Assembly (NCBI RefSeq): GCF_008831045.1
Contig: NZ_WAJS01000001.1
Span: 1 to 64,000, forward strand
Origin: Adlercreutzia muris
GTDB lineage: Bacteria; Actinomycetota; Coriobacteriia; Coriobacteriales; Eggerthellaceae
Length of the DNA stretch: 64,000 nt
Direction of reading: 5' to 3'
Part shown: positions 10,942 to 54,418 of the stretch, piece by piece
Numbering within the stretch: position 1 is the stretch's first letter
Layout of the letters: every line of letters begins with the position of its first letter
The notes under the pieces: model-generated
The model's input: the letters and a program-made list of their open reading frames with translations, nothing else
Databases searched by the model: none
Told to the model about the DNA's origin: nothing
Program-made: the position numbers and the translations under genes

Positions 10942-11083
10942 ATGAAGAACCTTAGATCGAGAATTGCCATCATCGTCACGTGAATCGCGGCTTTAGGAAT
11001 CGTCTGCGCCATGCTCTTCGTCTACTCGCAGTTCGTCAACGAGAAGTTCTATGAAGAGGCGAAGCGCAACTTCTCGGAGGTCT
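10942..11083 (+). pseudogene. 5' remnant of a membrane sensor gene with an internal stop
   Basis: Starting at ATG 10942 the frame reads MKNLRSRIAIIVT, then TGA (10981-10983), then continues as IAALGIVCAMLFVYSQFVNEKFYEEAKRNFSEV in the same frame. A positively charged start, one transmembrane helix and an amphipathic follow-on are the usual N-terminus of a histidine kinase or diguanylate cyclase sensor. A TGG-to-TGA change would explain the stop. Homology changes to an Abi gene end at about 11084, so the rest of the sensor has been replaced. Confidence 0.55.
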
Positions 11084-11407
11084 ATGAGCTGCATCATCAA
11101 CGGACTGAAGGACGAAGCGAGGACATCAACGGGTGTCTCCAGCATCGTCTACAGATGGCTTGACGAGATTGGCATACCTAAGGGGAGGGGCCGTAAATCG
11201 AAGTTAAGGAACGGGCGCATCCAGCAGTTGACGGAGACGCTTGCCATGTTCGACAGGATGGGCTGCCGCCCGACCTCGAAGGAGTCTATCGCAAGGCTCT
11301 CGGATCTGAGGGAGCGGTTAGATGACGCCTGCGGCAGATACGGCAACCAAAACGCTTTCGTGTTGTATCTCGGCTTTCTCTCCCGACTCACTGACAAAGC
11401 CACGTGA
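11084..11407 (+). pseudogene. 3' fragment of an Abi_2-family gene
   Basis: From SCIINGLKD to LTDKAT the frame aligns end to end with the C-terminal ~107 residues of the intact Abi protein at 21208-22218 (SCILNGMD ... LIDKAT), roughly half the residues being identical by eye. The fragment starts just two residues after the position of the RNxxxH motif, so the whole catalytic part is missing. No start codon or ribosome site of its own is convincing. It is followed at identical spacing by the same small-RNA element as the intact gene. Confidence 0.75.
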
Positions 11408-11416
11408 GCCTGTCAC

Positions 11417-11490
11417 TATACTCGTACATGTCAAAGCCTTCGAGGCTTTGTAAGGGCCGGTTCCACCGGGACTGGCTCTAGTTTTATTTA
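11417..11490 (+). ncRNA. Abi-associated two-hairpin RNA, copy 1
   Basis: A -10-like TATACT (11417-11422) lies 9 bp after the Abi fragment stop. Ten bases later comes hairpin 1, CAAAGCCT/AGGCTTTG (11432-11439/11443-11450). Three bases further is hairpin 2, GGGCCGGTTCC/GGGACTGGCTC (11454-11464/11468-11478), an 11-bp stem with a 3-base loop, and then a TAGTTTTATTT tail. Copy 2 at 22228-22300 has the same order and spacing. The upstream hexamer CTGACA is 20 bp from the -10, longer than ideal, so the promoter is plausible rather than certain. Function unknown. Confidence 0.6.
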
Positions 11491-11576
11491 GGCGCACGAT
11501 CGGGCCACATTCAAGTTGGCGATACGGCGTACATCTAGGCCGCTGCTCTCCCTGGCCGCTTGTTGAGGAGGCGCCT

Positions 11577-15512: not shown

Positions 15513-15640
15513 CGTTGTTCCTCCTTTATGTCGATGACGAACCTGAAGGAGGGACAACCAAGGAGGCAGGTTACTGACGGCTCGTCGCAAGAGGGCGGCC
15601 GCACCCCGACTACCCGACGGGGTCGTGTTTTTACCTTCTG
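15513..15640 (-). promoter_or_regulatory. Structured 5' leader of yjdF, candidate yjdF riboswitch
   Basis: On the minus strand a TATACT (about 15645-15650) precedes a leader beginning AAAAACACGACCCCGTCGGG, followed by a GC-rich hairpin region (GACCCCG/CGGGGTG) and then the AGGAGG ribosome site. An ACACGA stretch and a compact fold directly ahead of yjdF are what I recall of the Rfam yjdF motif. This rests on memory of the motif, without a covariance search. Confidence 0.45.
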
Positions 15641-15660
15641 GGGAAAGTATACCGCAGGAG

Positions 15661-20994: not shown

Positions 20995-21207
20995 CTTTCA
21001 GACCTCCTTTAGCCTTGTCGGCTCGCCCCCTTCGGGCTCGCCTTGCGGCCGGGCTGGCGCCGTGCGAACGTGCGGGCTCAAGGCGACCGGGGGCCGAGGC
21101 GTAGGCGGGAGGCCTGATGGCGCGGCCCGGGTCCCGCCATTGCGTCGATGGTCCGCTTTCGGGAATGCACGGTTCCAAGGCGATGACGCGGCGGGTAGAA
21201 TGGAAGC

Positions 21208-22218
21208 ATGGAGAAAACGGACAGAACATATATCGCGTGGGGCCTGAACGACGGCGCCCACGAGGCGCGGAACCTCAAGCCTATGCTCACGCCCGAGGAG
21301 CAGGTGGAGCTCTTGAAGGCCAAGGGCGTCACGTTCGAGCGTTGCGACGAGGCGAAGGCTACGGAGGCGTTGGCTCGCAGAGGAATGTTCCTGCATCTGA
21401 CAGCTTGCAGGAGGCTGTTCCAGAGGTTCGCGGACGGTCCGGATGAAGGGCGCTATGTTGGCCTGGACTTCGCGGACCTGTTGGACATGGATGAGCTGGA
21501 CGCAGCGCTTCGGCGTACCTTCCTGCTTGTGTCCCAGGACGTGGAGCGTCTGGCAAAGACCGCCATCATAACCCGCGTATCCGAGAGCGAGAATGAGGAC
21601 GGCTACGGCATCGTCGCCGATTTCATGGAGTCACAAGAGCCGCGTTACCGCGGCTACATCGTGCGCGATTTGCGCCTCCGCAGGAGCGAAGAGAGCGAGG
21701 GGGACGTTTATTCGGGCCGCATCATCGACCACTATGGAGAGGCCATGCCCGTGTGGGCATTCCTAGAAGTCGTGACGTTCGGCACGCTGCTCGCCTTCTA
21801 CCTTTTTTGCTCAATGCGCTGGGATGACAACCTGATGAGGGAGGAGCACTACATCCTCAAAGGCGTCAAGACGGTGCGGAACTGCTGCTCCCACGGAAGC
21901 TGCATCCTGAACGGGATGGACAGAAGCTATGAGTCTGATTACGCATTGTCGAGCGTCATCTACAATTGGCTCAAAGAAAAAGGTGTGCCGAATAGCAAGA
22001 CGCGCCGGACGAAGCTGAAGAATCGTCGCGTGCAACAACTCCTCGAAGTGCTGGTGATGTTCGATCGGCTGGACGGGTCGACGCTCTGTGCCGATACCGA
22101 CGCTATGCTGAAGCGGTTAAAAGGGCGACTTCTCGATGCGTGCGACGGCTACGGGGAGCAAAACGGCTTCGTGTCATATCTGCGCTTCCTGGCGAACCTC
22201 ATTGACAAGGCGACCTGA
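21208..22218 (+). CDS. Abi_2-family (AbiD/AbiF-like) HEPN protein, probable abortive-infection RNase
   Basis: A 336-residue protein. It carries the Abi_2 landmarks: FADLLDMDELDAALRRTFLL (helix after the FxDL-type start), MPVWAFLEVVTFGTLLAFY (the W-E-FG helix) and VRNCCSHG. The last contains the HEPN RNxxxH motif as R224-N-C-C-S-H229, expected to cut RNA. Lactococcal AbiD and AbiF of this family stop phage by killing or arresting the infected cell. ATG 21208 has only a weak ribosome site (GAATGGAAG). A TATAAT and a two-hairpin RNA follow 9 bp after the stop, and a truncated second copy with the same RNA lies at 11084. Function is inferred from family. Confidence 0.82.
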   Translation: MEKTDRTYIAWGLNDGAHEARNLKPMLTPEEQVELLKAKGVTFERCDEAKATEALARRGMFLHLTACRRLFQRFADGPDEGRYVGLDFADLLDMDELDAALRRTFLLVSQDVERLAKTAIITRVSESENEDGYGIVADFMESQEPRYRGYIVRDLRLRRSEESEGDVYSGRIIDHYGEAMPVWAFLEVVTFGTLLAFYLFCSMRWDDNLMREEHYILKGVKTVRNCCSHGSCILNGMDRSYESDYALSSVIYNWLKEKGVPNSKTRRTKLKNRRVQQLLEVLVMFDRLDGSTLCADTDAMLKRLKGRLLDACDGYGEQNGFVSYLRFLANLIDKAT

Positions 22219-22227
22219 GGCTGGCAT

Positions 22228-22300
22228 TATAATCGCAGATTCAAAAACCTTCGGGTTTTGCATGGGCCGGTCCCACTGGGACTGGCTCTAGTTTTATCTA
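22228..22300 (+). ncRNA. Abi-associated two-hairpin RNA, copy 2
   Basis: A perfect TATAAT (22228-22233) lies 9 bp after the Abi stop codon. Then come hairpin 1 with arms AAAACC and GGTTTT closed by a TTCG loop (22242-22260), hairpin 2, GGGCCGGTCCC/GGGACTGGCTC (22264-22274/22278-22288), and the tail TAGTTTTATCTAGG. Compared with copy 1, position 9 of the hairpin 2 left arm changes U-G to C-G, and a G-C pair in hairpin 1 becomes A-U. TTGACA occurs 20 bp upstream of the -10, which is too far for a standard promoter. It may be an independent small RNA or a processed 3' end. Confidence 0.65.
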
Positions 22301-22590
22301 GGCCTGTTCCAAGACCGCATCGAGATCGCTTGCGCAGGCTTCCACGATGCAGCGGACGGCGGAAAGCTCGGAGGCGGTTATCTGCTCGCTGTCGGCCTTG
22401 TCTTCGAGCATCTTCATGAGGGATGCCGCCCCTTCCAGCCTCTCGGACGGCTGGACCGCGGCGTTGACCATCTCTTTGGTTGGGGAGCAACCTTGACTTG
22501 CTTGAAGAGGTCGAAATCTTGAGGTAGCGCTTTCTCGGGGCCGCCGTTGCGTTTCCTTCTGCGGTTGTCCGCATCGGGAGGCCAGGCGGC
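22298..22590 (-). pseudogene. Frameshifted remnant of an unknown gene
   Basis: The minus strand reads PEKALPQDFDLFKQVKVAPQPK in one frame and, after one base, KEMVNAAVQPSERLEGAASL ... ACASDLDAVLEQA to a stop at 22298. The two parts join naturally near 22478, implying a frameshifted gene. No family is recognised. Its stop codon overlaps the tail of the small RNA on the other strand. A 57-codon intact small gene starting at ATG 22471 is an alternative reading. Confidence 0.35.
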
Positions 22591-22764
22591 CCTCGCGCAA
22601 TGTGCGATGGGCGTGCGTTTCGCGGGCGCTTGCCTCGCTAGCAGCTTGGGAAGCTTGGGCCTTACCACTTGGCGACGCCCGCGTGCTGTTGAGTTATACG
22701 CTATTGATCTTTGTCGGCCCCGACTAACAGATAAAACCACAATTTTGCTCGGCGGAACGGATGT

Positions 22765-45987: not shown

Positions 45988-46030
45988 GCGGTGCCCCTGC
46001 CTGCGCAGCTGAGGTTGAGTGTAGAGGAGG

Positions 46031-46130
46031 CGTCGGGTGTTCTGACCGAGCGAGTTCCGCAGCGACTGGAACAGCCCAGTGGGCTGTTCCACAAAGCGAG
46101 GACTGTCTGAGCGAATCAGAATACCCGATG
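46031..46130 (+). repeat. Structured intergenic repeat, copy A
   Basis: Outer stem GGGTGTTCTGA/TCAGAATACCC (46035-46045/46116-46126), extended by four more pairs, encloses CCGAGCGAGTTCCGCAGCGAC, the central hairpin GGAACAGCCC/GGGCTGTTCC (46068-46077/46081-46090) and ACAAAGCGAGGACTGTCTGAG. Internal loops carry AGCGA four times. Copies B (54282) and C (54134, reverse) have the same plan with different but complementary stem sequences. It lies between nikR and hypE. Confidence 0.75.
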
Positions 46131-46164
46131 GCTCCGACCAGCGATAACGCACGAGAGGAACGAT

Positions 46165-54126: not shown

Positions 54127-54133
54127 CTGCTCG

Positions 54134-54250
54134 GCGGGAGCAGGGGGTATACCTCCATGCTCAGACAGTCCTCGCTCGGCGGAAATGTCCAGTGGACATT
54201 TCCGTTCGCTGCGGAACTGCGCGTGGAGGCACACCCCCTGCTCCCCGCCT
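54134..54250 (-). repeat. Structured intergenic repeat, copy C
   Basis: On the minus strand the plan of copies A and B recurs. The plus-strand outer arms CAGGGGGTATACCTCCA (54141-54157) and TGGAGGCACACCCCCTG (54224-54240) pair over 17 bp with G-U. The central hairpin is GGAAATGTCC/GGACATTTCC (54181-54190/54194-54203). The conserved GCAGTTCCGCAGCGA and GAGCGAGGACTGTCTGAGC are retained. It starts just after hspR and may end the heat-shock transcript. Confidence 0.72.
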
Positions 54251-54281
54251 GCTCAACCAAGATTGGGCGTAGAGGAAACGG

Positions 54282-54377
54282 CGGGTGTTCCAACCGAGCG
54301 AGTTCCGCAGCGACTGAAACAGGACTTAACGTCCTGTTTCACAAAGCGAGGACTGTTTGAGCGAATTGGAATACCCG
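54282..54377 (+). repeat. Structured intergenic repeat, copy B
   Basis: Outer stem GGGTGTTCCAA/TTGGAATACCC (54283-54293/54366-54376) encloses CCGAGCGAGTTCCGCAGCGAC, central hairpin GAAACAGGAC/GTCCTGTTTC (54316-54325/54331-54340) and ACAAAGCGAGGACTGTTTGAG. It lies 42 bp upstream of clpB, in head-to-head arrangement with copy C. Confidence 0.75.
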
Positions 54378-54418
54378 GCGGTTCCGACCGACAGAGAGAT
54401 ACAAACAAGGAGATTTCC

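What the first reader, a model, noticed from the sequence alone, without database searches (positions are those of the whole stretch)
21208..22300. Abi_2/HEPN gene coupled to a compact two-hairpin RNA with its own -10 element
Seen: the stop codon of the intact Abi_2 gene is followed after 9 bp by TATAAT, then a UUCG-capped hairpin, an 11-bp hairpin and a U-rich tail, giving a potential ~60-nt RNA. The protein has R224-N-C-C-S-H229. Known: Abi_2 proteins (AbiD/AbiF) are HEPN proteins used in phage abortive infection, and a structured RNA motif named abiF has been reported near such genes. Inferred: the RNA is a guide, inhibitor or activator of the HEPN protein, forming an RNA-controlled defence unit. 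I cannot tell whether it is the known abiF RNA or a new class.
Basis: partly seen in the sequence, partly recalled or inferred. Interest (0 to 1): 0.85.

Follow-up and report, generated by a model that had tools for sequence, protein, structure and literature searches.

The report
Two-hairpin RNA paired with Abi_2 toxin
Directly behind a bacterial phage-defence gene of the RNA-cutting Abi_2 family lies a tiny, separately transcribed two-hairpin RNA that recurs beside one branch of this gene family in many gut bacteria and phages; it is most likely the RNA antidote to the toxin, and it differs from the one catalogued antidote RNA (abiF).

Summary
Behind the intact Abi_2 gene (21208-22218) lies a predicted ~60-nt RNA gene: sigma-70-type promoter, two hairpins, U-rich tail. 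A second copy (11431-11493) follows an Abi_2 remnant. A covariance model built here hits 103 of 400 Coriobacteriia genomes and almost nothing outside that class. Covariation is strong. In a protein-chosen sample, 22 of 22 intact genes of the main branch carry the RNA 3' of the stop. RNAs often occur without the toxin (52 of 118 hits), with structure and mostly promoter intact. This asymmetry suggests an RNA antitoxin. Rfam abiF does not match here; it marks a single hairpin 5' of genes of the other, deeply separated Abi_2 branch, also present in this genome. Bacillota phages and plasmids show the same 3' arrangement. Best explanation: an AbiF-like, type III-like toxin-antitoxin pair with a distinct RNA class and gene order, not a guide-RNA system. 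Transcription, binding and toxicity were not tested. One subscription paper with its own AbiF RNA models could not be read, so RNA novelty is provisional.

The parts
21208..22218 (+). Abi_2 (HEPN) gene, 336 aa, putative RNase toxin
   Evidence: PF07751 E=1.2e-17; PADLOC AbiD E=1.2e-20; profile of its branch matches PbAbiF 8VZ6, E=5.9e-6
21877..21894 (+). HEPN catalytic motif R224-N-C-C-S-H229
   Evidence: R224, N225, H229 invariant in 12 Abi_2 proteins
22202..22207 (+). -35 box TTGACA of the RNA promoter, inside the last codons of the toxin gene (LIDKAT)
   Evidence: promoter scan; same arrangement in relatives
22237..22297 (+). predicted two-hairpin RNA, about 60 nt (ends inferred from the -10 box and the U tract)
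   Evidence: R1 match 22238-22299, 74.1 bits; fold z=-4.1
22244..22259 (+). hairpin 1, AAAACC-UUCG-GGUUUU
22264..22288 (+). hairpin 2, 11 bp, followed by UAGUUUUAUC; terminator-like
   Evidence: covariation
11084..11407 (+). remnant of a second Abi_2 gene (C-terminal third)
   Evidence: 47% identity to residues 230-336
11428..11489 (+). second copy of the two-hairpin RNA, intact, beside the remnant
   Evidence: R1 63.6 bits; repeat D2; fold z=-5.0

Best explanation
The locus is a toxin-antitoxin-like pair: an Abi_2 HEPN ribonuclease toxin followed by a separately transcribed ~60-nt two-hairpin RNA that binds the protein and holds it inactive (type III-like, as in AbiF). The RNA gene has its own promoter, whose -35 box lies in the toxin's last codons, and its second hairpin may also end the toxin mRNA, so free RNA could be made in excess over the toxin. 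When host transcription is shut off, or the locus is lost, the RNA would decay and the nuclease be released. Shown here: the RNA element, its conserved fold, its promoter pattern, its coupling to this Abi_2 branch, the HEPN motif, and the asymmetry that RNAs occur without the toxin while intact toxins of the main branch were not found without the RNA. Inferred by homology: transcription, direct binding, neutralisation, RNase toxicity, and release by phage.
For: Recurrence in 103/400 Coriobacteriia genomes and near absence outside the class; 66 of 118 RNA hits directly behind Abi_2 on the same strand, none in front of it; 22 of 22 intact branch members chosen by protein carry it; covariation; promoter with at least 9/12 matches in 87% of gene-linked copies against 0.7% of controls; RNA and protein distances correlate, rho 0.56, 0 of 999 permutations; orphan RNAs keep their pairing; HEPN motif invariant; solved relative PbAbiF 8VZ6; in C. 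difficile the associated RNA binds and neutralises AbiF, and the matching R and H are needed for toxicity (PMC12373285).
Against: No transcript, binding or toxicity data for this branch. The RNA has no detectable similarity to abiF RNA, so function is carried over from the protein only. The correlation of RNA and protein distances would also follow from plain shared descent. 52 of 118 hits lack Abi_2 nearby, some beside unrelated genes. About ten of the 66 gene-linked hits belong to the model's seed set.
Confidence: 0.75

Rival explanations
1. The element is only the intrinsic terminator of the Abi_2 gene, with a chance hairpin before it.
For: Hairpin 2 plus the U tract scores as a terminator and sits just behind the stop.
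Against: Hairpin 1, the linker and the UAG of the tail are conserved; a promoter precedes the hairpins at fixed spacing; copies persist without the gene.
Confidence: 0.06
2. The RNA activates or guides the HEPN protein (effector RNA, Cas13-like) instead of inhibiting it.
For: Cas13 is reported to derive from AbiF-like proteins, and the crRNA of Cas13e both inhibits and guides (PMC12737573).
Against: No variable spacer-like segment: loops are short and the unpaired parts are conserved. Orphan RNAs without toxin, but no intact main-branch toxin without RNA, fit an antidote better.
Confidence: 0.1
3. The RNA is a general RNA module of defence loci, not specific to Abi_2; its present neighbours are interchangeable.
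For: 44% of the hits examined have no Abi_2 within about 1.7 kb; at least nine lie 3' of AbiEii toxin genes, and others behind SLFN_AlbA_2, Abi_C, YhcG, Trypsin_2 or endonuclease genes.
Against: No single alternative partner; several orphans follow what reads like an Abi_2 C-terminus; some lie beside ordinary metabolic genes; RNA and protein distances correlate for Abi_2.
Confidence: 0.06
4. The element is a DNA recombination or insertion site (attC-like or MITE-like) that folds as single strand.
For: Multiple dispersed copies per genome, up to ten in one, next to changing genes.
Against: G-U pairs are frequent and even the commonest type at one position, as expected for RNA rather than DNA; promoter at fixed spacing; always 3' and same strand when Abi_2 is present.
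Confidence: 0.03

Closest known systems
AbiFCd-RCd22 of Clostridioides difficile, with Rfam abiF RNA RF03085 (PMC12373285)
   Same: Abi_2/HEPN protein with an RN-x3-H motif; small structured RNA beside the gene, with its own sigma-70 promoter and a terminator-like end
   Different: RCd22 lies 5' of the gene, is co-transcribed with it and holds two copies of a single hairpin with an internal loop; here the RNA lies 3', has a promoter embedded in the toxin gene, two simple hairpins of other sequence, and no RF03085 match
PbAbiF-AbiFr complex (PDB 8VZ6; Zilberzwige-Tal et al. 2025, known here through PMC12373285 and PMC12737573)
   Same: Protein homology (profile E=5.9e-6); RNA-bound Abi_2 homodimer described as a type III-like pair
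   Different: Its RNA sequence could not be compared here (paper not held)
ToxIN and other type III toxin-antitoxin systems
   Same: Proposed logic: RNase toxin held by a small structured RNA; tandem RNA copies occur at some loci here
   Different: From my own knowledge: ToxN is not a HEPN protein, and ToxI is a repeat array 5' of the toxin that the toxin cuts into units; no such array is seen here

Membership tests
Abi_2 protein family (PF07751) | match over the curated cut-off | tested here: met
   65.2 bits against 25.6
HEPN ribonucleases | R-N-x3-H motif | tested here: met
   RNCCSH 224-229, invariant R, N and H in 12 proteins
HEPN ribonucleases | RNase activity | not testable with these tools
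   needs biochemistry
Rfam abiF RNA (RF03085) | match over the gathering score | tested here: not met
   no match at E<=10 in 21000-22600, none in 18 relatives; the model does find phiC2, L159 and L161
Rfam abiF RNA (RF03085) | single hairpin with internal loop, 5' of the gene | tested here: not met
   two hairpins, 3' of the gene
Type III toxin-antitoxin (RNA antitoxin) | structured RNA gene beside an RNase toxin gene | tested here: met
   the toxin is an RNase by motif only
Type III toxin-antitoxin (RNA antitoxin) | RNA binds the toxin and neutralises it | not testable with these tools
   needs co-purification and toxicity rescue
AbiF RNAs modelled by Zilberzwige-Tal et al. | match to their covariance models | not tested
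   paper and models not held; that models exist is known from PMC12804078

The most novel reading that the evidence does not exclude
Abi_2 toxins consist of two anciently separated lineages with unrelated RNA antitoxins in opposite gene orders, and the uncatalogued two-hairpin RNA of the second lineage also persists as a stand-alone immunity RNA, expressed next to other defence systems such as AbiE, protecting its bearer from Abi_2 toxins of incoming elements.
Probability: 0.25. Interest if true: 0.8.

Novelty: new variant of a known kind. Interest (0 to 1): 0.62.

Why it matters
HEPN-RNA pairs of the AbiF kind are proposed as the root of CRISPR-Cas13. A second Abi_2 branch with a different RNA, in the opposite gene order and with a promoter embedded in the toxin's coding sequence, would show that RNA control of these nucleases arose or was replaced more than once, and would give a compact natural inhibitor to study. 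It also supplies a covariance model that finds the RNA across Coriobacteriia, where Rfam has no model for it, and makes the antitoxin role and the orphan copies directly testable.

Tried and rejected
Rfam abiF search of the genome and locus: none. AlphaFold2 on a three-sequence alignment gave mean pLDDT 44, so no fold search was run. Consensus folding of the first MAFFT alignment of 29 RNAs failed because hairpins were misaligned; a smaller alignment with a hand-set structure was used instead. Scans with single proteins found two genome loci and no viral loci; the alignment-based scan found 15 viral loci. A loose pattern for abiF-like hairpins upstream of genes proved unspecific (29 of 30 in one branch, but also 7 of 20 in the other), so the abiF-like hairpins without an Rfam match are judged by eye only. 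NCBIfam gave no match. The 2017 motif paper and the 2025 Cell paper are not held. Considered and rejected: terminator only, recombination site, guide RNA (see rivals).

Full report
OBSERVATION. The sequence at 21208-22300 is as described. The ORF is Abi_2 (PF07751, E=1.2e-17) with RNCCSH at residues 224-229. Nine bp after the stop lies TATAAT, then a UUCG-capped 6-bp hairpin (22244-22259), an 11-bp hairpin (22264-22288) and UAGUUUUAUC. The 61-nt RNA folds at -26.2 kcal/mol, z=-4.1. A second copy at 11431-11493 is 81% identical and follows a C-terminal Abi_2 remnant.

RECURRENCE. Relatives of the protein were collected by protein alone and the DNA behind them was read: the same two-hairpin element follows the stop in nearly all. 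A covariance model (R1) built from 14 of them hits 103 of 400 Coriobacteriia genomes at E<=0.001. In a draw of 297 genomes of the phylum the only hit outside the class is weak (E=0.0052). The genome lies near Adlercreutzia (61% protein match in an uncultured Adlercreutzia genome); that the 400 genomes are Coriobacteriia rests on this placement and on my knowledge of the taxonomy, since the tool names no genomes.

STRUCTURE. On 92 distinct sequences 94.7% of cells pair, against 80.0% in shuffles; 14 of 17 pairs have changes on both sides; sliding the partners destroys the signal. That alignment was fitted to the model, so the MAFFT alignment A2 was also counted: 92.9% against 79.2%, covariation score 0.463 against 0.219. 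Conserved sequence features are the A-U base of hairpin 1, the GUAA linker, a mid-stem G-U in hairpin 2 and the UAGUU tail.

PROMOTER. Upstream of the RNA, 87% of gene-linked copies have TTGACA-N16-18-TATAAT with at least 9 of 12 matches, against 0.7% of control windows, with the -10 ending within a 2-3 nt range of distances from the RNA. Where the RNA is close to the gene, the -35 lies inside the toxin's last codons (window: LIDKAT). Of the orphan copies 56% reach the same score.

ASSOCIATION. Of 118 RNA hits in fetched loci, 66 have Abi_2 directly upstream on the same strand (stop to RNA start -7 to 159 bp), none has it downstream, and 52 have no Abi_2 within the fetched flank. About ten of the 66 belong to the seed set, and a few orphans are cut by contig ends. 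In the protein-chosen sample, my count is 22 of 22 intact members of the main branch with the RNA; L024 (two stops) and L034 (one stop, truncated) lack it. L028 and L035, a distant subfamily (23-24% identity), are intact and have no such RNA 3', but a two-hairpin element 5'; counting them it is 22 of 24. Orphans pair as well as the others (0.939 against 0.941 of pairs). Orphan neighbours include AbiEii, SLFN_AlbA_2, Abi_C, YhcG, Trypsin_2 and endonuclease genes, but also transporters and metabolic genes. Several orphans follow what reads like an Abi_2 C-terminus, and tblastn finds short stretches similar to Abi_2 in four loci (one of these is an N-terminal stretch).

TWO BRANCHES, TWO RNAS. 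A maximum-likelihood tree of 97 Abi_2 proteins splits at a 100/100 branch. One side holds all 59 rows labelled two-hairpin; the other holds all six rows labelled abiF (five with Rfam matches, two of them over the cut-off, and phiC2). The window's own gene appears as L007 and was labelled NA by a naming rule of my script; it carries the RNA. On the abiF side the matches lie 5' of the gene, and most unlabelled rows show a hairpin of the CCCGCC..GCCTCT..GGCGGG kind by eye. R1 finds only one weak hit there, E=0.027, not behind the gene. This genome has both kinds: L001 on another contig with the abiF-like hairpin, and the locus here. Long branches make the deep joins unsure.

OTHER PHYLA. Evtepia and another gut phage (L039, L046), a Kurthia plasmid (L040) and a Campylobacter plasmid (L044) show the same 3' arrangement. 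Of 15 viral loci found by protein profile, R1 finds the RNA behind the gene in eight at E<=0.1; by eye L196, L203 and L209 also have it, and L204, L205 and L207 have a different RNA at the same place. A hairpin-pair scan scores 11 of 15 against 0 of 150 shuffles, though three of the 11 are those last loci, where the match may be spurious.

MECHANISM. Close literature: AbiFCd is toxic, its RNA RCd22 binds and neutralises it, and R202/H207 are needed (PMC12373285). The profile of the two-hairpin branch alone matches PbAbiF 8VZ6 (E=5.9e-6). RNA and protein distances correlate (rho 0.56, 0 of 999 permutations; 0.50 for pairs under 55% identity), which fits a cognate pair but would also follow from shared descent. 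With the loss asymmetry this favours an RNA antitoxin. Transcription, binding, neutralisation, toxicity and release by phage are inferred.

NOVELTY. The kind (HEPN Abi_2 toxin with an RNA partner) is known. The RNA class is absent from Rfam 15 and the gene order differs. Zilberzwige-Tal et al. had at least two AbiF-related covariance models (PMC12804078); neither paper nor models could be read, so the RNA may already be known to them.

Noticed in passing
L069, L080, L115, L117, L118, L136, L144, L145, L148: Solitary two-hairpin RNAs lie about 60-145 bp behind AbiEii (type IV toxin) genes, with a conserved promoter, in several genera and two families.
   Followed up: partly
L043, L204, L205, L207: Streptococcal-type Abi_2 genes have a different conserved RNA-like element at the same place behind the gene, with the -35 TTGACA again in the last codons.
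   Followed up: no
L028, L035, L036: A distant Abi_2 subfamily has a two-hairpin element in front of the gene instead of behind it.
   Followed up: no
L017, L021, L098, L101, L140, L153-L156: Two copies of the RNA stand in tandem behind one gene.
   Followed up: no
window 22298-22600 (-); L086, L099, L106, L127, L130, L131: A small convergent gene starts 2 bp beyond the RNA match and stays with the RNA even where Abi_2 is replaced by other genes.
   Followed up: partly
window 10950-11407: The Abi_2 remnant abuts what reads like the broken start of a sensor kinase gene, behind a pstB-like gene.
   Followed up: no
window 15534-15644 (-): Azaaromatic (yjdF) riboswitch, RF01764, 68.5 bits; another lies near the Abi_2 locus L017.
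   Followed up: no
window 45995-46139 and 54243-54389: Two direct repeats of about 145 bp, 83-88% identical, and a 71% inverted match at 54129-54218; nature unknown.
   Followed up: no
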